The notes under the pieces were generated by a model, which was not told the DNA's origin, ran no database searches, and was given only the letters and a program-made list of their open reading frames with translations. A DNA stretch of 64,000 bases from Herpomyces periplanetae (taxonomy: Eukaryota > Ascomycota > Laboulbeniomycetes > Herpomycetales > Herpomycetaceae): positions 1 through 64,000 of the forward strand of contig WMKJ01000004.1 in NCBI GenBank assembly GCA_009733715.1, given 5' to 3'. Position numbers and translations under genes: made by a program. Of this stretch, positions 28,108 to 47,288 are shown one piece after another; position 1 is the stretch's first letter, and every line of letters begins with the position of its first letter.

Positions 28108-28991
28108 TTTTTTTTAACCTTCTTGCCCTTCAACCCAAAAACCTTTCAAAATCGCCAAAAGCTTTTCCTCCAAATTAACGCACTCAATTCCTTGCTCCCC
28201 TATCTCACGTGATCTATTCGTCACGGGATACCTACTCTGATTGGTAAGCGGCTTACTGATCCTCGTCGGGCAGAGTCACGTGATATTGGCTTGGTATTTT
28301 TTGCGATTTTTTCTTGAACGGAACGCACAATTTTTTACAATTCTTTTTATTTGCTTTGTGATAATTATTTCCTAATTGTGTTGTATTAGCGCTTTTAATT
28401 GTATATAGCATAAACGCTAAAATACATAGATTTACGCTTTTTGCCTGCATACAATTACTAACTTTACCCCACCTTTTGCATCGTTTCCTCCCTAGGTTTC
28501 TACTTTTTCATATTATACCAACGAATCCTCCCGCTATTACTCTATTTTCAGTTGGAATTAACGTTTCATTCACCTTAATTCAGAAATTTGGTTACAACCA
28601 CCCCTCCCCTTCTCTTTTTTACCGTGCAAACTATACCTTAATCTCTCTCCTCTTTCACCCCCACGTTTTGGTCTCTAAACCCGCTGACGGTGTTACTACT
28701 TCATACTCATTATCATTATCCTTTCTTATCTAGACCAGTTGTAACACTTCATGATTGGTAAACGTGTTCCCTCCTTGCTCTCCCGTCCTCATTATTACCA
28801 TTTACGTTTATTGTATGCGCAGAATTACTCCCATTTCCGTAGAATTTTACTTATTCGCTCTCTGCTTTTGCTACACTTTTGTTGGACTGACGGCTTATGT
28901 TTATCTAGGCGTATCGTGTTAGCTTAACCTTTTCTGCACACTTTGATCTGTGCTTTACCTACTCAGGATTTTCGGGCTAGATATTTTCCCC
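28108..28991. promoter_or_regulatory. Divergent promoter region between IMP3 and HIS7
   Basis: About 880 bases. The IMP3-proximal part carries TCACGTGA twice and TCACGGGAT once. The HIS7-proximal part is C/T-rich, like other leaders on the coding strand. No TGACTCA site was noticed. Confidence 0.5.
28205..28283. promoter_or_regulatory. TCACGTGA (two copies) with TCACGGGAT
   Basis: The palindrome TCACGTGA occurs at 28205-28212 and 28276-28283, with TCACGGGAT at 28221-28229 between them. The same pairing with a degenerate E-box recurs before the PFF1 gene. A bHLH factor is the likely binder of the palindrome. The second motif is unassigned. Confidence 0.5.
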
Positions 28992-30728
28992 ATGAATAGT
29001 GTTTACATTGTCGATTATGGTTCGGGTAATTTACTTTCATTGGCTAATGCTGTGAAAAAGCTGGGCTACACAGTTAATTGGGCCACAACAACTAAGGATA
29101 TTGTTGATGCGACCTGTTTAATTTTACCAGGCGTTGGCCACTATGGCTATTGCTGCGCTGAGCTACGTCGACGTGGGCTTGAGGATGCTATACGTGATCA
29201 TATTAACGCTAATAAACCATTTCTTGGTATTTGTGTTGGCTTACAATACTTAATGGAAGGCTCTGCTGAAGACTCTACGGCAAGTGGGTTAAACATTATA
29301 CCGGCTAGATTAGAAAAGTTCTCTTCCCACGATAAGCCCGTTCCTCATATGGGCTGGAATAGCGTTCATTATTATACATCGGCCAGTTCATCATGGTTGG
29401 GTGTTCAAGCCAATGACTCACGCTTAGGCGATATTCAGTATTACTTTGTTCACTCGTATGCACTCTGCTTTGATGATCCGACCACTCAGCAACGTTTATT
29501 AGAAGCTGGTTGGAGTGTTGCTCTCACAGTATACGGGGATGAGCTCTTTGTTTCAGCTTTACGCAAGGGAAACGTTTTCGCTACCCAATTTCATCCGGAG
29601 AAGAGTGGACAATGTGGTCTTGATTTACTGAAAAATTTCCTCGGTTCTACACTTGTTACTGGGCCTACATTACCCCGGGATAAGTTGCCAGAGAGTTTAC
29701 CAATGCAAGCATCTCTTCAAAAATGGGCCAATTCATTGCGTCCCAACATGCCTAGTTGCCGCATAATGGTGTGTTTGGACGTTAGATCGGATGACCACGG
29801 TAACTTGGTCGTAACAAAGGGTGATCAATATGATGTTCGTGAACGTAATGAAAATGCTACTGTGGGATCAATTAACGGGCAAGTCCGCAATATGGGAAGT
29901 CCAATTGACATGGCGGAACGTTACTACAATCAAGGTGCAGATGAAATTGTATTCCTCAGTATAACATCATTTAGGAATTGCCCTGCTCAAGATTTACCTA
30001 TGCTAAATATTCTGCGTAGTATATCGAAAACGGTGTTTGTACCGCTCACAATCGGTGGAGGAATCACTGATACACTGGATTCAAATGGCCAAAGTATACG
30101 AGCGGTAGAGGTAGCAAGTTTATACTTTAAGAACGGAGCTGATAAAGTTAGTATTGGATCAGATGCTGTTTACGCAGCAGAAAGGTATTACGGGGAGTTA
30201 GGGGAAAAATTGGATGGAAGTTCATCAATAGAGCAAATTTCCCGCCAGTACGGGAAACAAGCAGTTGTTGTATCTGTAGATCCTCGCAGAGTTTATCAAA
30301 CGTCCATTGATGATCAAAAGGAACATTCTGTTATACGGACAAAGATTCCGGGAAAATCTGGTGAAAGTTACTGCTGGTATCAGTGTACGGTTAAAGGTGG
30401 ACGGGAAAATCGAAATATTGATGTTATACAGTTAATTCGAGCCGTTGAAATTATGGGAGCAGGTGAAATTTTGTTGAACAGTATTGATCGTGATGGTTCA
30501 TCAATGGGCTTTGATACCGAGTTAATAGAATGGGTTAAACGTAGCACTAAACTTCCTGTTATAGCGAGTAGTGGGGCAGGAAATCCGGATCACTTTCGAA
30601 AGGTTTTTCAACAAGCTTGCCCCGACGCCGCTCTGGGTGCAGGAATGTTTCATAGCGGAAAATTTACTATTAGAGATGTCAAAACGGAACTACTCAAAGC
30701 TGGATTAAAAGTTGCAGATCACGATTGA
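28992..30728 (+). CDS. HIS7: HIS7, bifunctional imidazole glycerol phosphate synthase
   Basis: A single-exon frame of 578 residues from ATG 28992 (MNSVYIVDYGSGNLLSL). It takes ammonia from glutamine and uses it with PRFAR to make imidazole glycerol phosphate and AICAR, linking histidine and purine synthesis. The N-terminal glutaminase domain (about 1-210) carries Cys81 in GICVGLQYL and the His201-Pro-Glu203 pair in FHPEKSG. The C-terminal cyclase barrel (about 245-578) carries RIMVCLDVRSDD, VVTKGDQYDVRE, VPLTIGGGITD, LLNSIDRDGSSMGF and IASSGAGNP. The order and length match fungal HIS7. It converges with CHL1, with only 65 bases between stops. The frame is open upstream of this ATG, but the family begins here. 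Confidence 0.97.
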   Translation: MNSVYIVDYGSGNLLSLANAVKKLGYTVNWATTTKDIVDATCLILPGVGHYGYCCAELRRRGLEDAIRDHINANKPFLGICVGLQYLMEGSAEDSTASGLNIIPARLEKFSSHDKPVPHMGWNSVHYYTSASSSWLGVQANDSRLGDIQYYFVHSYALCFDDPTTQQRLLEAGWSVALTVYGDELFVSALRKGNVFATQFHPEKSGQCGLDLLKNFLGSTLVTGPTLPRDKLPESLPMQASLQKWANSLRPNMPSCRIMVCLDVRSDDHGNLVVTKGDQYDVRERNENATVGSINGQVRNMGSPIDMAERYYNQGADEIVFLSITSFRNCPAQDLPMLNILRSISKTVFVPLTIGGGITDTLDSNGQSIRAVEVASLYFKNGADKVSIGSDAVYAAERYYGELGEKLDGSSSIEQISRQYGKQAVVVSVDPRRVYQTSIDDQKEHSVIRTKIPGKSGESYCWYQCTVKGGRENRNIDVIQLIRAVEIMGAGEILLNSIDRDGSSMGFDTELIEWVKRSTKLPVIASSGAGNPDHFRKVFQQACPDAALGAGMFHSGKFTIRDVKTELLKAGLKVADHD

Positions 30729-30793: not shown

Positions 30794-33700
30794 TTAGTGG
30801 CTTGAAGGGGAAAGGGAATTGGTATAACGCGATGTCATGCGATGAAAAAATTCATCGACTTCGCGTAAAATTTGGGATTGGTTAAAGGAAGGTTTAACGC
30901 TGGCTTTCATCCATCCTGGTAGTCTACATCGAATACGCTGACTTGTATATCTTTTATCGATTAAGATGATGGTGGCATAATCCCTTGAATGCCTGATTAC
31001 ACGGCCAATAGCTTGGTTAACGGCTCTCATGGTACAATTATCGTAATAGTCTCTCGCGGCCTGTTTTCCCGATGAATTCTGGAGGGATTTTAGTGATTTC
31101 TCAGTCGGAAGAGTAGATGCAATAGGATTGGGGAATTCCTCTTGAGAAGCACAAGATTTGAGCATAATATATTCCATTTTGGCCTTCCATTCTGCGCTGT
31201 GAGGATTTGGGAATGGTAGTCCTATTACAATTACACATCGTCCGTACGCATCACCAAAATTGATTCCTTCAGATAAACTACCTCCGATCACGGCAAAAAG
31301 AATGGCTCCGCGATGTGTCGTGGTCCACGTTTCATCGACCAACCTTTTATACTCCGTTAACCTATCACCCTTTTCACCTTGGTTTGTTTCACTCTCGTTA
31401 ACAACGCCCGTTGTTGCTGCTACTGAACCGCTATTTTCACACTCTTCTATAATGGGTTTTTCGAGGCATAATCGATCATAGATACTGGGGGAACCAATCT
31501 TTTTCCACTTGTTAACACACGATTCCATGTAAGCGTAGCTCGGGAAAAATATCACTACACCATCCGGAATCTGCAGTGTTATCTCCGCTATGCATAATCC
31601 CAGCTTTTCAATGTTTATTTCCGATTCTCGTTTACCGAAAGTAAAATCAAATTCATGTCCGTCGTCCGTACAAGCTAATGACCATATGGATACATGATCA
31701 CTTGGAACAACGTGTCCGCACGATAAACTGACGATTCGGTTTGCTTCAACATATGGCATTAGATATCGTGTATAATCTTCCATTGGAGACATTGTTCCTC
31801 CTATCATGACCACGGATTTGGCTTGTTCCACGATTCCTTTAAAATGGTTACTAGCATCGAGTAACATGTACCTGAGAATTATCATACTTTGGTTACTCTG
31901 ATTTCCGCAACTTCGTGAGTAAAACCATCTTCCCTCTTGACTTGTGTTCAATAACGATAACAAGAAACTTTCTACGGTGTATAATACTGGAGTTGTCACG
32001 GATTTCTCATTAACGTTAACCGTTTCCACGTATCCGTTAACTTTTCGGGCCAATCCACTCTCTTTAAGATAACGAATAAGTTTATACAAGTTTATTTGGT
32101 CAATGCTATTAGTCTTTAATAAATCGGACCCTGAAACTACACCCTCACTGGCCTTTCTCACGTCCAACAATCCCTGAAGATACTGATCAAGGGAATTTAA
32201 TATTCGTGCAAGTTGTGTAATGTAAACTTTATTCTTTCCACTTAATCTCTTGCCATACTTGCCCAAATAAACCTTCAACTGTGCCTTGGATTCCCTTACT
32301 TGGTCCATCGTTATACTCGCTGAATATGCATTCCTTATGGCATCAATTAAATTATGTGCCTCATCAATTATCACCACGTTTCCTTTAACTACTAGGGATA
32401 AAGCTTCGCGTGCACTACTCTGAAAAAGTAGAGCGTACGGTACGCTAACGATCTAAATCGACGTTAATCAAATTTGCCCACTGGCCTCTCCCATCATTAT
32501 GCATCATCACATTGTACACTGATACACTTAAACCGTGTGATAATTCATTCATCAACAAAATTCAATCGTTTCATCAATCTCTTACCCCTTCCCTTCTCCT
32601 TGAAAATTAATCAATTCTGCATACAAACTTGTCTTACCTCACTATACTTAATAACATCTCGTGATGCATAATACCCACAAATTCCCAATCTCTGCCCAAT
32701 TTTCCCCAAATCTTCAATGTCTCGTACACTAGCCAGTGCCCTATCACGAAATTCTTTGACCAGTGGTTCATTTTCCTTGGTTGGCATATACATGCAACGT
32801 TGTCCCCGTGCTTTTCCCCCTCTCTGAAGCTCTTTGCACTTTTCATTTATTGCGGTGCTGCTCTTTAGACATGCCACACTTTTATTCACGCATAAATTTT
32901 TCCTTGAGCCTAGCGTCAAATACTTAATTGATTCTAAAACTTCCCAATTATCACCTTTGCTAAGCCCTCCTTTTGTTAAATCAGCCGGAATACTGGTCGG
33001 TAATGTTATCTTTTTCACTTCATCCGCAAGTTGGGTTAACTGAGAATGCGTTCTCGTACAATAAATAATTTTAACATTATCATTGTCATCACCTTCATTA
33101 TCTTCAAAATCATCATCTTCCGCTACACTCTTTTTCCCTTCTATCAAGCCACTCATTCCTAACTTATGAAATAATCTAACTGTTTCACTTGACAATCCTG
33201 TATATTCATCGACAACTTTAATGCCATTTTCACCCTCACTCTCATAATCATCCAAGTCAAATTCTTCATTTAGCCTTTTTGCTTCAATTCCTCCAGTAAC
33301 TCTCTATACCATAAAAATGTGAGTCTTATGCGTAATAAAATTGACCCCCGCTATACCCAATAACGCCATAATATAGTATAACATCTTTACGGTAATTATA
33401 CTAAACCATGACAAAACTCAAGCAAGCATTTCGTAACCGTGTGTAATAATCATCACATGCATCTTGTGAATCATTTTAAAAAGTATAATACTTGTATTCA
33501 CTTAACTACAGAGTGTAAAACAAATGGAGATATACTTACCTGTCGTTTAAGTAACCGAGCCTTCGTGCAACTTTCGTTTTCCGGAGCATCAGACTCTCTT
33601 CGGATTTTCGCAAGGCGCTCTTCAAGCTTTTTTCGAGCTTGCATTACACGGTCAAATTTTATTCTACGTTCATGCTCGACAATCCAATCAGGCTCATCAT

Positions 33701-34337
33701 CATCACCATCTATAAGATGAAATTAAACCAGTCATTACATTAGATGAACAAATTTAGCTTGCTTATGCATGAACAAAACCAAAAACAAAAACAAAGCGTC
33801 GCAATGTTAACTCCGCTATCACCTTTATTCATATCATCCGAAATTAGCTCTAACTTTCTTCGTTTATAATCACGAAGCCAAGTAAGAGCTGAACAAAGTA
33901 TACTAAGTGATTTTCCCTAAACAAAATTACCCTTGGGTCAGTTAACTCATAATACAAGCCAATGTGGTTTCATTCGGGACAAGCAACCCCAATAATTTTG
34001 TTATTTGGCCCATGCGTTAACTTATTTACTCATAAATATTTAACTCACCGTTCCTGTACACACGTAAAAAGTCCATGTATAATAAATAGTTTATCAAGTG
34101 AGTAGATAAATTAGCAAACTCTTCGCATACTCGGTTAACGGAATCAACGGTCATGAAGCAGAATAAAACGAGCGGACGCCAAAAGTAGCATGTAAACTAC
34201 AACTTGACCAATAACGAACCTGTGGGTGACTCAAATATTCCGATTTTACTATGATCAAGGCAATCGTAGATAGCGTTCATGAGTTGGATCTGAACATCGT
34301 ATGGGTTATGCGGATGATGAAAAGGGTTATTAGACAT
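30794..34337 (-). CDS. CHL1: CHL1/DDX11-like Fe-S DNA helicase
   Basis: Six exons: 34220-34337, 34049-34053, 33823-33916, 33540-33709, 32638-33303 and 30794-32452. They join in phase to 903 residues. CHL1 is a 5'-3' DEAH helicase needed for sister-chromatid cohesion. The N terminus reads KIGIFESPTGTGKSLSIL, matching human DDX11. The GT of the Walker A loop GTGKS is supplied by a 5-nt exon, GAACG, flanked by TACAG and GTGAGT. Other motifs are IIYCTRTHSQLTQLADE (Ia), a four-Cys Fe-S region around NLCVNKSVAC, INEKCKEL, GQRCMYMP and GICGYYASRD, DEAHN (II), GGSLSEGINFGDAYGRCV and QAIGRVIRHSRDYA (VI). All catalytic motifs are intact. Skipping the microexon would shift the frame inside the P-loop. 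The 236-nt intron between exons 4 and 5 is the least certain join. Confidence 0.93.
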
Positions 34338-39216: not shown

Positions 39217-40061
39217 GGTTTTCGTTAATTTCCAAACTTTCCCACAAATTGATTTCTAACCGAATATTTTGAATTTCCCTTTACAAAATTTCCCGTCCAA
39301 TGTCAACCCAGCTCTCACTTTAATAATTCAGGTTCCCTCTTTAATCCTCAAGGCAGCCCAAAGCCCAAACTTGTAAAAACTTTCGTCCTTGACTTTTCAC
39401 ATTTAAAATTTCTTTAAATTTTTCATTTTCTCGGTGTGCGCCACTTGCTTACGTCAGATACTTTAGATTCACACACAAATTTTACTCTAAGCTTTTTCTT
39501 CCATTGAACCATTAATTCTACCTTTCTAATTATCAAAATTTACTTTATTCTTACTTCTAAAGCTTATACAAATGTATACAATGATACTTAATGCGCTTTA
39601 TTTTTTCATTTCAAACACTTAATTCATCAAGCATATCTCTGACCACATACATTCACGACCTTGCCCAAATTTTCACCAAGTCACGTGCCAATTCCACTGG
39701 GGATGCCTAGTCAGCTCGAGGCCGTGAGGGCGCGAGAACTTGCTTGCGAATTGTACTCTTGATAGCATTGTTCGCGACGAGTTCGTTTGTCCGTCTTAAT
39801 TACTGGAGTCAGCTATATTTCGTGTTAATTGTTTTGAAAGATAATAAAACTTTAAAAAGTTTTGATTTGCTATTTTTTCAATCCTCCTCGCGTAGCCGTT
39901 ACCACGGCATATCGCGATTGATATAAATTGAATTCTGTTTTATCCTTGAAAAAACTATCATTACTGTCTCAAATTCCTTAATATAATAGATCTCTTCTAA
40001 CCTCAAAGTTTACACTTCTTCCCTTAACGAAATTGCTGAATTTTGATAAGGTTTGCGAGCT
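39217..40061. promoter_or_regulatory. Divergent promoter region between eL34 and PRP8
   Basis: About 845 bases with a TCACGTG at 39681-39687 near the middle (465 from the eL34 start, 375 from the PRP8 start). The rest is AT-rich. No gene seen. Confidence 0.5.
39681..39687. promoter_or_regulatory. TCACGTG E-box between eL34 and PRP8
   Basis: A CACGTG core within AAGTCACGTGCC, roughly central in the divergent promoter of two essential RNA-related genes. Confidence 0.35.
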
Positions 40062-43000
40062 ATGTCTACCTTTCCTTCTCAATCTTCTCATACTCCCTCT
40101 CCAGGCTGGCCATCCTCTCATCAGCAAACTTTACAGTCCTCTCCTTCATCCGGTTGGATACCTCCACATTTATCGCAAAATGTGCCTCTTCATACCCCCA
40201 ACGGTTGGACATCTTTACCCATTCACGATACTTCTCAGCCTGGAACAACGAATAGCTATGCTTCCGGCTTCCTGCCTAATTATTCAAACCTTCCCGGCAG
40301 CGGAGGCTACGACTCAAACCAAGCTAATATACCAAAAGGACCCAGTTTAGATTTTGGTGTTAAACGGAAAGATGGTTTTGTCGAGACTCAGAAAGTTGAC
40401 ATGCCCCCGGAGCATCTTCGCAAAATTTTCAAGGATATTGGTGACGTTTCACAAAAAAAGTTTAGTCATGATAAACGAAGCTATCTAGGCGCACTCAAAT
40501 TTATGCCTCATGCTGTGCTTAAGTTACTAGAAAACATGCCAATGCCATGGGAATCTGTTCGTGATGTAAAGGTTCTATACCATATCAACGGTTGCCTTAC
40601 CCTCGTTAACGAAACCCCTCGTGTCATCGAGCCCGTTTTTCATGCTCAGTGGGCAACAATGTGGGTTGCAATGCGTCGTGAAAAATGTGACCGACGGCAC
40701 TTTAAACGCATTAGATTCCCCCCTTTTGACGATGAAGAGCCTCCGTTATCATGGTCTGAAAATATTGAAGACGTTGAGCCATTGGAGCCTATCCAATTGG
40801 AACTTGATGAATATGAAGATGCTCCTGTCTACGAATGGTTTTACGATCATCACCCACTTGCTGATACTTCTCACGTCAACGGCCCCAGCTACAAAACCTG
40901 GAACTTAACCTTGCCTCAGATGGCTACCTTGTATCGCTTGAGTCATCAGCTTCTCAGTGATATTGTCGATAAAAATTACTTTTATCTCTTTGATTTAAAT
41001 AGCTTTTTCACGGCCAAAGCATTGAATGTAGCTATACCCGGAGGCCCTCGGTTCGAACCTTTATTCAAGGATGTCGACCCCAATGATGAGGATTTTGGTG
41101 AATTCAATGCTATTGATCGAATTATATTTCGATCTCCTATTCGCATTGAGTATCGTGTGGCCTTTCCCTTTTTATACAATTCATTACCTCGCAGCGTGAG
41201 AGTGTCGTGGTATTCTTACCCCTTAGTTGTGTATGTACGAGCGGAAGACCCTCTATTACCAGCATTCTATTTTGACCCAATTGTCAATCCAATTTCGTCG
41301 CGTGCGGTAGCCTCGCGAAATATTACCATTCCCCATGAAGATTTGATATTCCATGATTCTGACGTGGATGATGAGTTTATTCTTCCTGATTATTTTGAAC
41401 CTTTTATGTGGTGCGAAGAGTTGTACACACCAGAAACCGCATCCGCCATCGCCCTCTGGTGGGCTCCATATCCGTTTGATAGACGGTCTGGGCGAATGGT
41501 TCGAGCTCAAGATGTTCCATTGGTTAAACAATGGTACCTGGAACATGTTCCTCCAAATCAACCAGTTAAAGTTCGTGTTTCGTACCAGAAGCTTCTCAAA
41601 ACTTATGTACTCAATGAACTACACACGAAGCCTCCCAAGGCTCAAAATTGTCAGAACCTCCTTCGATCCTTAAAAGGTACCAAATTTTTCCAGCAGACAA
41701 CAATTGATTGGGTTGAAGCAGGACTTCAGGTTTGCCGGCAGGGATTCAACATGCTTAATTTACTTATACACCGAAAGAACTTGACGTATCTTCATCTCGA
41801 TTATAATTTTAATTTGAAGCCCGTAAAAACTTTAACGACAAAGGAGCGCAAAAAGTCCCGTTTCGGAAACGCGTTCCATTTAATGCGAGAAATTTTGCGC
41901 TTGACCAAGTTGATAGTTGATGTTCAGGTTCAGTACCGCTTGGGAAATATTGACGCATTTCAGTTGGCCGATGGCATACTCTACGCCTTTAACCATGTTG
42001 GCCAGTTGACAGGCATGTATCGATATAAGTATAAATTGATGCATCAAATTCGAACCTGCAAAGACTTTAAACATCTCATTTACTACCGGTTCAATTCAGG
42101 GTCCGTAGGTAAGGGACCTGGCTGTGGGTTTTGGGCACCTGCATGGAGAGTTTGGCTCTTTTTTATGCGGGGTATTATTCCTTTGTTAGAACGCTGGTTA
42201 GGAAATTTGTTATCACGACAGTTTGAAGGTCGTCACAGCAAAGGAGTTGCCAAAACAGTCACAAAGCAGCGAGTTGAGTCTCACTTCGATTTGGAACTTC
42301 GGGCTTCGGTTATGGCAGATCTAATGGATATGATGCCAGAGGGTATTAAGCAAAGTAAGGTGAATACTGTATTGCAACACTTGTCGGAGGCGTGGCGATG
42401 CTGGAAAAGTAATATACCATGGAAGGTACCTGGGCTTCCAGCACCAATTGAGAATATTATTTTACGATACGTCAAAAGTAAAGCTGATTGGTGGATATCA
42501 GTTGCTCACTATAATCGAGAGCGGATAAGACGGGGTGCTACGGTTGACAAAACAGTTGCTAAAAAGAATTTGGGACGATTGACACGATTATGGCTCAAAG
42601 CAGAGCAAGAAAGACAGCATAATTATTTAAAGGATGGACCTTATGTTTCCTCAGAAGAAGCGGTAGCAATCTACACAACAATGGTTCATTGGCTAGAATC
42701 CCGCAAGTTCCAGCCGATTCCTTTCCCAGGTGTATCTTACAAACATGATACTAAGATATTAATTTTAGCATTGGAACGTTTACGTGAAGCTTATTCGATC
42801 AAAGGTCGTTTAAACCAAAGTCAAAGAGAAGAGTTAGCATTAATCGAGCAGGCGTACGATTCTCCGGGTACAACACTGGCGCGAATCAAACGTTTTTTGT
42901 TAACGCAACGTGCCTTTAAAGAAGTAGGAATTGATATGAACGATAACTACAGCTCAATCAATCCCGTTTACGAAATTGAGCCAATTGAAAAAATTACGGA

Positions 43001-46000
43001 TGCTTATCTTGATCAATATTTGTGGTATCAAGCGGATCAAAGACATTTGTTCCCCGCGTGGATTAAACCCTCAGATTTAGAAGTAGCTCCATTACTAGTA
43101 TACAAATGGGCGCAAGGAATTAATAACTTAGAAAATGTCTGGAGCGTCGAGAATAATGAGTGTAATGTAATGATTGAAACTCAGTTATCAAAGGTGTATG
43201 AGAAAATTGATCTTACGCTGCTTAATCGGCTGCTCAGGCTGATCATGGATCACAATCTAGCCGATTATATTACCTCAAAGAACAACGTTCAATTAAATTA
43301 CAAGGATATGAATCATACTAACAGTTACGGGCTAATTCGTGGCCTTCAATTTTCAGCTTTCGTATTTCAGTATTACGGATTGGTGATTGATCTTTTGCTG
43401 CTTGGATTGCAACGTGCTAGTGAGATTGCAGGACCACCACAGAATCCGAACGACTTTCTTCAGTTTCGAGATGTTGCGACAGAGACTCGACATCCCATCA
43501 GACTTTATGCACGATATATTGATAAGATTTGGGTGTTCTTACGCTTCACTGCAGACCAATCGCGTGATTTGATTCGAAGGTTTCTTACGGAACAACCGGA
43601 TCCTAACTTTGAGAATATTATTGGGTACAAAAATAAAAAATGTTGGCCGCGGGATTCCCGTATGCGTTTGATGCGACACGATGTTAACTTAGGACGTGCA
43701 GTATTCTGGGAGCTGAAGAACAGATTACCGCGGTCTGTTACAACGCTACAATGGGACGATACAATGGCCAGCGTCTATAGTAGGGATAATTGCAACTTGC
43801 TCTTTTCAATGTGTGGATTTGAGGTGCGATTATTGCCCAAGTGTCGCAATTTGAATGATGAGTTCCCCGTGAAGGACTCGGTATGGTCGTTGGTGAATAA
43901 TGTGACAAAGGAGCGCACAGCTTACGCATTTCTTCAAGTTACTGAAGATGACATTAACAAGTTTAACAATCGAATCCGACAAATTCTCATGTCTTCTGGC
44001 TCAACCACTTTTACCCGAATAGCAAATAAATGGAACACTACGTTAATTGCATTATTTACGTATTACCGCGAAGCTGCCGTTTCTACGGTCAGTCTGCTGG
44101 ACACGATTGTAAAATGTGAAACAAAGATTCAGACCCGTGTGAAGATTGGTTTGAACTCAAAAATGCCTTCACGTTTTCCACCTGCGGTATTTTATACTCC
44201 CAAAGAGTTGGGAGGGTTGGGAATGATTTCTGGATCGCATATTTTGATACCAGCAAGCGATAAACGGTGGTCGAAGCAGACAGATGCCGGTGTTACACAT
44301 TACCGAGCGGGAATGTCACACGACGAAGAAACGTTGATACCCAATATATTCCGCTATATTATACCTTGGGAAGCAGAATTTATTGATTCTCAAAGAGTAT
44401 GGATTGAGTATTCGCAAAAGCGATTGGAAGCACAACAGCAAAATCGTCGACTTACACTGGAAGATTTGGAAGACAGTTGGGACCGTGGTTTACCGAGAAT
44501 AAATACATTGTTTCAGAAGGATCGTAGTACTCTGAGCTTTGATAAAGGATTTCGTGCACGGACCGAATTTAAGATATATCAACACATGAAGAATAATCCG
44601 TTTTGGTGGACTAATCAACGACATGATGGGAAGCTTTGGAATCTCAACGCCTATCGTACGGATGTTATTCAGGCGTTGGGGGGTGTTGAAACCATTTTAG
44701 AGCATACCTTGTTCAAAGCTACAGCCTTTCCGTCCTGGGAAGGACTGTTTTGGGAAAAAGCGAGTGGATTTGAAGAGTCGATGAAATTTAAAAAATTAAC
44801 TAATGCACAACGGTCAGGGTTGAATCAAATTCCAAATCGACGGTTTACTTTGTGGTGGTCACCGACGATTAATCGGGCGAATGTTTACGTTGGATTTCAG
44901 GTTCAACTGGATTTAACGGGTATCTTTTTGCACGGAAAGATTCCGACGTTGAAGATATCGTTAATTCAGATATTCCGGGCTCATTTATGGCAGAAGATTC
45001 ATGAATCTGTAGTTATGGATTTGTGTCAAGTGTTTGATCAAGAATTGGACGTCTTGGGGATTGAAACGGTGCAAAAGGAAACTATTCATCCAAGAAAGTC
45101 GTATAAGATGAACAGTTCGTGTGCAGATATTTTACTATTTGCTACGCACAAGTGGAGCTTGACACCGCCTTCATTATTGTTTGATTCCAAGTCGACGATG
45201 AGCTCGACGACAACGAATAAGTTTTGGATAGACGTTCAACTTCGGTATGGTGATTATGATTCGCACGATATTGAACGATATACTCGAGCGAAATATCTTG
45301 ATTATACACAAGACAGCATGAGTATTTATCCGTCAGCAACAGGTTTGATGGTGGGGATTGATTTAGCCTACAATTTATACTCAGCGTACGGTCAGTATTT
45401 CCCGGGGTTGCGGCAGTTAATCCAGCAAGCTATGGCGAAGATCATGAAGGCTAATCCGGCCTTGTATGTTTTACGGGAACGGATTCGTAAAGGTTTGCAA
45501 TTATATGCGTCTGAGAGTAATCAGGAATTTTTGAACTCGCAGAATTACGCAGAATTGTTTAGCAACCAAATTCAGTTTTTTATAGATGATACCAATGTGT
45601 ATCGGGTGACGATCCATAAAACGTTTGAAGGGAATTTAACGACTAAGCCCATTAATGGTGCCATATTTATATTCAATCCGAGAACGGGACAACTTTTCCT
45701 AAAGATTATTCACACAAGTGTGTGGGCTGGTCAAAAGCGATTGGGTCAACTTGCTAAATGGAAAACGGCAGAAGAAGTGGCAGCGTTAATTAGATCTCTT
45801 CCTGTTGAAGAGCAACCTAAACAGTTAATAGTTACTCGTAAAGGGTTGTTGGATCCCTTGGAAGTTCATTTACTGGACTTCCCAAATATTTCAATACGGG
45901 CATCTGAATTACAATTGCCGTTTCAAGCGGCTATGAAGATTGAGAAGTTAGGAGATATGATTTTAAAAGCAACGGAGCCGCAGATGGTGTTGTTTAATTT

Positions 46001-47288
46001 GTATGATGAATGGCTTAAATCGATATCACCTTATACGGCATTTTCGCGTTTAATATTAACTTTGAGGGCGTTGCATGTTAACCCAGACCGGACCAAGATC
46101 ATCTTGCGTCCGGATAAAACGGTAATAACGGAGGATCACCATATTTGGCCAACACTGTCGGATGAGGAGTGGATTAAAGTGGAAAATCAACTGCGGGATT
46201 TGATTTTGAACGATTATGGGAAGAAGAACAATGTTAGCACTTCTAGTCTGACGAATTCGGAAGTACGAGATATTATACTGGGAATGGAGATAAGTGCGCC
46301 GAGTTTACAGCGACAACAAGCAGCCGATATAGAGAAACAGAAAGAGGAACAAGGCCAGGTGACTGCGGTAACGACACGAACACAGAATATACATGGAGAA
46401 GAAATTATTGTGACGACAACATCACAGTATGAGCAACAAGCATTTGAATCCAAGACGGAATGGCGTAGTAGAGCAATTGCAGCGACGAATTTGGTAACAC
46501 GAGCCAACAATATTTATATTTCGTGTGAAGATGTTCGTGAAGATGATTTTTATACGTACGTTATAGCGAAGAACGTGCTTAAAAGTTTTATTATGATATC
46601 GGATTTGCGGGTGCAAGTAGCGGGATACTTATATGGAAAATCACCGGATGATAACGATCAAGTTAAGGAGATCAAAGCGATTGTACTAATACCGCAAATT
46701 GGGAATGTCCGTGAGGTGCGCTTGGCGAAAAAGAAGCCTGAAAATGACTATTTGAACAGCCTGGAACCTTTGGGGATAGTTCATACAGTTTCAGGGAATG
46801 AAAGTGGTTACATGACTGCAATGGATGTACTGCAACATTCGAGATTGATGAGTTCATTTGAAGAATGGGATAAGAAAACTATTAGTCTAGTGATTTCATT
46901 TACACCGGGGTCGGTAACTCTGTCGGCATGGGCACTCACACCCCTGGCGTATAAATGGGGAATGGAGAATATTAGTTCTGGGAGATACAGCGGTAACGGT
47001 TTAAGCAAAGAGGAAGAGGACAATCTACCTGGGTTCTCTAGGACGTTTGGAAGTAAATGCCAATTACTACTTAGTGATAAGTTTAAAAGTTGCTTTATGG
47101 TTCCGGAAGATGATATGTGGAATTACAGTTTTATGGGAAACGTATTTAGCGAGGTTGAAAAGCGAGATTTTCATGTTAAATTCGATGTTCCTCGTGAATT
47201 TTACGATCCCATTCATCGTCCGTTACACTTTCAAACGTTCGCTGAACTTGAGGATGCAGGTGTTGACGGTTGGGATCACTTTGAATGA
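40062..47288 (+). CDS. PRP8: PRP8, U5 snRNP core splicing factor
   Basis: One uninterrupted 7.2-kb frame of 2,408 residues from ATG 40062, close to yeast (2,413) and human (2,335). PRP8 holds the catalytic RNA core of the spliceosome. A Pro/Ser-rich N terminus (about 100 residues) precedes the PRO8NT block ([20 protein letters not shown]). The long RT-like region with linker follows, then the endonuclease-like domain ending near residue 1750 ([20 protein letters not shown]). The RNase H-like domain lies at about 1830-2000 ([20 protein letters not shown]). A C-terminal MPN/JAB1 domain from about 2150 ends [19 protein letters not shown]. In PRP8 this MPN domain regulates Brr2 and is not a protease. 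No intron is present, and no inserted intein was seen. Confidence 0.98.

What the first reader, a model, noticed from the sequence alone, without database searches (positions are those of the whole stretch)
34049..34053. Five-nucleotide microexon completing the Walker A loop of CHL1
Seen directly: exon 1 ends ...CCC ACA G, exon 3 begins GGA AAA TCA, and joining them directly gives a frameshift and no P-loop. Between them lies TACAG|GAACG|GTGAGT, with textbook splice sites on both sides. Including these five bases gives ACA GGA ACG GGA AAA TCA, i.e. TGTGKS, in the conserved ESPTGTGKS context known from DDX11. A 5-nt exon inside the catalytic nucleotide-binding loop is extreme for a fungus and makes activity of an essential cohesion helicase depend on microexon inclusion.
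Basis: partly seen in the sequence, partly recalled or inferred. Interest (0 to 1): 0.78.

Follow-up and report, generated by a model that had tools for sequence, protein, structure and literature searches.

The report
Five-base exon completes Chl1's ATP loop
In this fungus the gene for the DNA helicase Chl1 contains a predicted exon only five bases long that would supply two residues of the enzyme's ATP-binding loop, and wrong gene models in its relatives suggest that many filamentous fungi likely share it and that annotation pipelines miss it.

Summary
On the minus strand GAACG (34053-34049) lies between AG and GTGAGT and is the only one of 14 open AG..GT/GC pieces of the 303-nt gap that restores ESPTGTGKS. 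Joining exons 1 and 3 directly gives ESPTGKIT-stop. A helicase-blind gene model, trained on this contig without CHL1, picks exactly GAACG when short exons are allowed and breaks the loop when they are not, though by a small margin. Equally good restoring 5-mers: 0 of 5000 shuffles.

The more interesting result lies outside the window. Of 192 listed public Chl1 models, 31 are broken at this loop; 14 later motifs have indels in 0-6 of 192. Nine of the 31, from seven Pezizomycotina classes, are broken as expected if exon 1 ends in phase 1 and the next recognised exon starts in phase 0 at GKS. The microexon is likely old and often missed. No RNA and no relatives' DNA could be examined. Ultra-short exons are known elsewhere, so this is a new member of a known kind. 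'Essential' is overstated.

The parts
34220..34337 (-). CHL1 exon 1, 118 nt, ATG to ...ESPT+G, ends in phase 1
   Evidence: aligns to homologues
34054..34219 (-). intron A, 166 nt, CAG|GTTCGT...GTACAG, weak donor
34049..34053 (-). predicted microexon GAACG, completes Gly and adds Thr of TGTGKS
33917..34048 (-). intron B, 132 nt, ACG|GTGAGT...TTTAG; donor in the best 0.1% of all GT on the contig
33823..33916 (-). exon 3, 94 nt, starts GKSLS in phase 0, ends in phase 1; 5+94=99 nt, so microexon plus exon 3 are frame-neutral together
33710..33822 (-). intron 3, 113 nt
33540..33709 (-). exon 4, 170 nt
33304..33539 (-). intron 4, 236 nt
32638..33303 (-). exon 5, 666 nt, holds most of the DEAD_2 match
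32453..32637 (-). intron 5, 185 nt; acceptor placed by homology (IVSVPYALLF), the ab initio model prefers 32419
30794..32452 (-). exon 6, 1659 nt with stop; DEAH box and C-terminal helicase motifs

Best explanation
The five bases GAACG at 34053-34049 (minus strand) are likely a constitutively included 5-nt microexon of the CHL1 (DDX11) helicase gene, predicted to complete the Walker A loop ESPTGTGKS. Shown by sequence and calls: exon 1 ends in phase 1, exon 3 begins in phase 0, only GAACG joins them into the conserved loop, and each single mis-splicing translated (skipping it, keeping intron A, keeping intron B) meets a stop within 8 codons after ESPT. Inferred: five bases are too few for both flanking sites to be occupied at once, so the introns would be removed one after the other. 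Intron B, with the strong GTGAGT donor, would go first and fuse GAACG to exon 3; intron A, with the weak GTTCGT donor, would follow. Also inferred: the same exon is an old feature of Pezizomycotina CHL1 genes that gene predictors often miss.
For: Only one of 14 stop-free, frame-compatible AG..GT/GC pieces (2-59 nt) of the 303-nt gap gives TGTGKS. T is invariant in the intact models: 158 SPTGTGKS and 3 SPTGTGKT, 161 of 192. Site scores and chance rates. An ab initio model with CHL1 left out of training chooses 34053-34049 at 3 of 3 penalty settings, and with a 20-nt minimum exon jumps to 33888 at 3 of 3. Mis-spliced products end ESPTGKIT, ESPTGSLLVKL and ESPTGTVS. The rest of the gene is intact: C267, C285, C299, C338 (Fe-S ligands by recall), DEAH and GRxIRH invariant over 24 aligned sequences; TIGR00604 (rad3) 475.6 bits, cut-off 246.95. 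Relatives: 31 of 192 models broken at the loop; indels there in 26 of 192 against 0-6 of 192 in each of 14 motifs from CTRTHSQLT to RLPGWMKAS. Six models (P0283, P0286, P0288, P0294, P0297, P0301) pass from ESPT to the start of exon 4, the form that skipping microexon plus exon 3 gives in the window (ESPT|DGDDDEPDW); three (P0284, P0304, P0308) are cut upstream and resume exactly at GKS. The nine are from Lecanoromycetes (3), Geoglossomycetes, Lichinomycetes, Sareomycetes, Candelariomycetes, Dothideomycetes and Leotiomycetes.
Against: No RNA read or cDNA was available. The score gain of the microexon in the ab initio model is small (29.8 against 29.0 at the strictest setting); the same model other exons of 20 nt or less on the contig at that setting and 24 others at the next, runs genes together at the loosest, and prefers another acceptor for intron 5. 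Its training introns are themselves predictions. The intron A donor GTTCGT is weak. 161 of 192 listed models have an intact loop, so either those pipelines find the exon or many lineages have one intron only. The cross-species argument rests on protein models; relatives' DNA was not found, and an ordinary 99-nt exon with poor sites could also be skipped by a predictor. The 192 are the listed best hits of 3903 and 4290. Indels are also common beside the loop (19 of 192 at HHPHNPYDV, 15 at ALTWLRDYK) and in variable stretches (up to 146). Broken models cluster (14 of 31 have a broken nearest neighbour, about 5 expected), but relatives often share a pipeline.
Confidence: 0.83

Rival explanations
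1. A stwintron-like nested intron: introns A and B are removed as one unit in two steps and the five bases between them are not kept in the message.
For: Stwintrons are documented in Pezizomycotina families (PMC12403724, start of abstract, one passage). Two adjoining introns with a tiny spacer look like one.
Against: Full removal joins ACAG to GGAAAATCA and gives ESPTGKIT-stop; the conserved loop needs the five bases.
Confidence: 0.04
2. The CHL1 copy is decaying: the loop is lost and GAACG is a chance match.
For: A weak first donor; no transcript evidence. A restoring 5-mer of any quality arises in 2.46% of shuffles.
Against: The other junctions join in frame to a 903-aa protein with conserved motifs. 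Equally good sites arise in 0 of 5000 shuffles. The DEAD_2 search of the genome, whose counts are lower bounds, finds only this gene and an XPD-like one, so no second CHL1 is seen to stand in.
Confidence: 0.04
3. The microexon is real but young and peculiar to this lineage: a second intron was gained five bases from an existing one; the broken models of relatives are ordinary annotation errors at a single intron.
For: 161 of 192 listed models are intact. Single-intron retention at this place would explain models such as P0070 and P0114, whose inserts end in Gln before GKS, as a retained intron ending in CAG would.
Against: A single intron at either place would leave the phases compatible, so neither the exon-1-to-exon-4 joins (6 models) nor the cut-back joins to GKS (3 models) would be needed to keep the frame (inference).
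Confidence: 0.3
4. Assembly error: an indel in the contig creates a false need for the five bases.
For: Reads were not available.
Against: A small indel would not create two introns of typical length (166 and 132 nt; training introns have log-mean 118 nt) around the missing codons.
Confidence: 0.02

Closest known systems
Ultra-short plant microexons (1-15 nt), including a 5-nt exon in rice (PMC8831610; start of abstract, passages)
   Same: Tiny, conserved, widely misannotated exons; the authors infer consecutive removal of flanking introns with the upstream one often detained
   Different: Plants, with RNA-seq and RT-PCR evidence; here a fungus, sequence evidence only, and a catalytic ATP-binding loop
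Human MPC1 4-bp constitutive microexon (PMC9929638; abstract and outline)
   Same: Not a multiple of three and constitutively included
   Different: Its inclusion is helped by a strong exon-defining region in the bordering introns; none is known or was sought here
Arabidopsis APC11 single-nucleotide exon (PMC4674806; abstract, opening text and outline)
   Same: Shows that an exon far below 5 nt can be constitutive; an outline heading says the GenBank cDNA was misannotated
   Different: Plant, 1 nt, supported by expression constructs
Trichoderma Xlr2 microexon (PMC11121469; abstract and passages)
   Same: Microexon in a filamentous ascomycete that decides whether a functional domain is made
   Different: Switched by glucose in a transcription factor; no regulation is shown here
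Phanerochaete chrysosporium P450 microexons (PMC1184071; passages)
   Same: Fungal, down to 6 bp
   Different: Basidiomycete multigene family, microexons of 2-10 aa
Stwintrons of Hypoxylaceae and Xylariaceae (PMC12403724; start of abstract, one passage)
   Same: Two U2 introns very close together, removed in order
   Different: Nothing between them is kept in the message; here five coding bases must be kept

Membership tests
Ultra-short microexon (15 nt or less) | Internal exon of 15 nt or less between canonical GT-AG introns | tested here: met
   5 nt; GT-AG on both introns
Ultra-short microexon (15 nt or less) | Needed to restore the conserved reading frame and protein | tested here: met
   Unique restorer of TGTGKS among 14 pieces; skip gives a stop
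Ultra-short microexon (15 nt or less) | Present in mature RNA | not testable with these tools
   No RNA reads held
Ultra-short microexon (15 nt or less) | Conserved in relatives | tested here: inconclusive
   Error patterns of nine protein models in seven classes fit it; DNA of relatives not found
CHL1/DDX11 XPD-family helicase | Walker A and DEAH boxes, motif VI and four Fe-S cysteines | tested here: met
   G42, K43, D381-H384, G834-H839 and C267, C285, C299, C338 invariant or nearly so over 24 sequences; the role of these Cys is recalled
CHL1/DDX11 XPD-family helicase | Closest relatives are CHL1 rather than XPD | tested here: met
   The 120 listed hits, many of them named CHL1 or chl1, match at 42-47% over 94-100% of the query; an XPD-like gene is separate, on contig C4
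Stwintron | Whole intervening sequence is removed, nothing kept | tested here: not met
   Removal of all 303 nt gives ESPTGKIT-stop

The most novel reading that the evidence does not exclude
Microexon and exon 3 together are 99 nt, a frame-neutral cassette that carries the whole Walker A loop. A microexon that fails to be joined would make the spliceosome leave out the pair and give an in-frame, ATPase-dead Chl1. Some reports hold Chl1 helicase activity dispensable for cohesion but not for fork integrity, so an ancient 5-nt exon could act as a switch between a helicase form and a scaffold form across Pezizomycotina, and the six public models that lack the loop exactly this way could be real isoforms.
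Probability: 0.06. Interest if true: 0.85.

Novelty: new member of a known kind. Interest (0 to 1): 0.56.

Why it matters
If confirmed, it would be among the smallest coding exons reported in a fungus, placed inside a catalytic loop where skipping it alone gives a stop, and probably very old (age inferred from the classes that seem to share it). It gives a ready test of how fungal spliceosomes, which are thought to favour intron definition (recalled), handle an exon too small for two complexes. It also has a practical side: 31 of 192 listed public Chl1 models miss or garble the ATP-binding loop, so domain calls and comparisons of this helicase are likely wrong for many species in a way that one rule in a gene predictor might correct.

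Tried and rejected
Direct DNA comparison: two scans of viral contigs gave 3 loci (22-41% identity, 41% over 37 residues), and one of genome contigs gave 80 loci, the best of 246, all with bacterial or archaeal titles and 20-28% identity. None looked like a fungal CHL1 and none was read further. The metagenome collection is capped at 0 and was not tried. An Rfam scan of the window found nothing.

A first ab initio model with a low intron penalty fused the contig into 10, then 4 genes and was discarded; the penalty was raised. At the loosest setting (penalty -8) the model again over-predicts (145 exons of 20 nt or less); its choice of GAACG there is worth little. What the 20-nt setting loses (GTGKSLSILCS) is my own reading of its coordinates.

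Regex controls were uneven: TRTHSQ missing in 1, DEAHN in 2, GGTM in 3, GRxIRH in 0 of 192, but SRK.LC in 20, the YYA motif in 26, P.LL in 9, FFPSY in 6, GxPFPN in 8 and MRAVNQ in 8, part of this probably natural variation; one pattern (SEGINF) was written wrongly and matched 0 of 192. I therefore used indels in the alignment: 26 of 192 at the loop and 0-6 of 192 at each of 14 later motifs; but 19 at HHPHNPYDV and 15 at ALTWLRDYK, both beside the loop (lost starts and the skipped exon), and more in variable stretches outside motifs, up to 146.

Protein-level hints that I could not make decisive: models with GKGKS, GEGKS or GAGKS (P0056, P0311, P0087, P0036) look like read-through of GTAAG, GTGAG or GTGCG donors, but the end of such an extension needs a second GT that I cannot see. 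Inserts as in P0077, P0119, P0298 and P0309 were not resolved. P0001 (ESPTAGTGKS) fits an NAGNAG acceptor at intron A, not proven. P0247, P0280, P0287, P0291, P0292, P0293, P0295, P0296, P0299, P0305 and P0306 are broken too but were not counted among the nine.

Paralogue: an XPD-like gene on contig C4 has its P-loop in one uninterrupted reading frame, so the microexon is not a feature of the whole XPD family. Literature: the listings for CHL1 with intron and Walker A (12 of 60 shown) and for microexons, mostly in fungi (mostly capped listings), showed no title on a CHL1 microexon.

Full report
What is there. The first 1200 residues of Prp8 (window 40050-47288) are 90-91% identical to all 120 listed relatives, those with names being Pezizomycotina of several classes (classes recalled). 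CHL1 is at most 48% identical to the 23 relatives aligned. The source is therefore likely a filamentous ascomycete without a near relative in that database. On the minus strand the CHL1 gene has six predicted exons: 34337-34220, 34053-34049, 33916-33823, 33709-33540, 33303-32638, 32452-30794, giving 903 residues. It carries Walker A, four invariant cysteines, DEAH and motif VI and scores 475.6 bits with TIGR00604 (rad3). Solved relatives include FANCJ, XPD and a chain named CHL1.

The five bases. Exon 1 ends CCC ACA G, exon 3 begins GGA AAA TCA. With those ends fixed, I listed every piece of 2 to 59 nt between an AG and a GT or GC in the 303-nt gap that keeps the frame open: 14 pieces, of which only GAACG gives TGTGKS. 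The loop is nearly invariant: among 192 listed CHL1 proteins, 158 have SPTGTGKS, 3 SPTGTGKT, and the other 31 are broken. Without GAACG the message reads ESPTGKIT-stop; with intron A kept ESPTGSLLVKL-stop; with intron B kept ESPTGTVS-stop.

More than chance. I built splice-site tables from 47 introns predicted on the contig with CHL1 left out. The microexon's donor GTGAGT is in the best 0.1% of all GT on the contig and at the 89th percentile of the training donors; its acceptor is at the 55th, the acceptor of intron B at the 74th, the donor of intron A (GTTCGT) at the 30th. A loop-restoring 5-mer between AG and GT turns up in 2.46% of 5000 shuffles of the gap, with sites as good as these in none; on both strands of the contig 32 exist, one with sites as good, which must be this one. 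A simple gene model that knows nothing of helicases, with CHL1 excluded from training, chooses 34053-34049 at all three penalty settings when exon length is free. With a 20-nt minimum it jumps to 33888 inside exon 3 at all three and so loses the loop. The gain is modest (29.8 against 29.0 at the strictest setting), the model calls five other exons of 20 nt or less there and more at the looser settings, and it prefers 32419 to the homology-based 32452 for exon 6. This is support, not proof.

Relatives. No fungal DNA was found, so I read public gene models as records of what predictors met at the locus. In 192 proteins (120 listed and 72 further ones listed, the best of 3903 and 4290 hits) 31 lack the intact loop. 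Indels fall inside FESPTGTGKS in 26 of 192 against 0-6 of 192 in each of 14 later motifs; two stretches beside the loop have 19 and 15, and variable stretches have up to 146. The breaks have a pattern. Six models run ESPT straight into the first residues of exon 4 (ESPT|ENDEP, ENDEP, DDEEP, ADDDDDEP, DNDEP, DAEEP), each with a junction residue whose codon begins with G; this is what the window gives if microexon and exon 3 (5+94=99 nt) are dropped together (ESPT|DGDDDEP). Acidic residues are common there anyway, which weakens the G argument. Three models are cut back to where VGIFESPT would follow and resume exactly at GKS. Both look like frame rescues, needed if exon 1 ends in phase 1 and the next visible exon starts in phase 0, which is the microexon arrangement; a poor predictor could also produce them from one intron. 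The nine come from seven classes. Broken models cluster: among named entries, 4 of 5 Xylographa, 3 of 4 Phyllosticta, 2 of 3 Geoglossales and 3 of 3 Parmeliaceae (Alectoria and Usnea placed there by recall), often broken in different ways; 14 of 31 have a broken nearest neighbour, about 5 expected. Shared pipelines may add to this. Against it, 161 of 192 are intact, so many lineages may have one intron only, or better evidence behind their models.

How it likely works. Inferred: consecutive splicing. In a plant study most microexons examined had more reads with the downstream intron removed first, and the authors argue that a microexon is too small for both complexes at once (PMC8831610, passages). 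Here the strong site is the downstream donor, so intron B first is the natural prediction. There is no sign of a regulated switch, and each single failure translated yields an early stop; only the double skip keeps the frame.

What is known. Exons of 1 nt (PMC4674806, abstract and outline), 4 nt (PMC9929638, abstract and outline) and 5 nt (PMC8831610, passages) are known outside fungi. In fungi, exons of 6 bp are reported in P450 genes of Phanerochaete (PMC1184071, passages). The Trichoderma Xlr2 paper states that functional microexons had not been described in filamentous fungi before it, and that fungal ones had been tested only in S. pombe (PMC11121469, abstract and passages).

Verdict. A well-supported predicted microexon, ordinary in kind but extreme in size and place, and probably an old, often misannotated feature of Pezizomycotina CHL1.

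Noticed in passing
public CHL1 models P0283, P0286, P0288, P0294, P0297, P0301, P0284, P0304, P0308 and 22 others: 31 of 192 listed fungal Chl1 proteins lack or garble the Walker A loop; a likely systematic annotation error.
   Followed up: partly
window 40050-47288 (+): Prp8, the core splicing factor, is a single uninterrupted 2412-aa reading frame near the intron-containing CHL1 gene.
   Followed up: no
window 28947-30728 (+) and 30794 (-): A fused histidine-biosynthesis gene (GATase plus His_biosynth) ends 65 nt from the end of CHL1, tail to tail.
   Followed up: no
contig C165: 204780-204770, 204426-204425, 159852-159841, 103684-103676, 218129-218110 (-): Other exons of 20 nt or less called by the ab initio model at the strictest setting; not checked against homologues and may be false.
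   Followed up: no
G000:C4, locus L003: An XPD/Rad3-like gene of the same genome keeps its P-loop in one reading frame, with short introns elsewhere (introns read by eye).
   Followed up: partly
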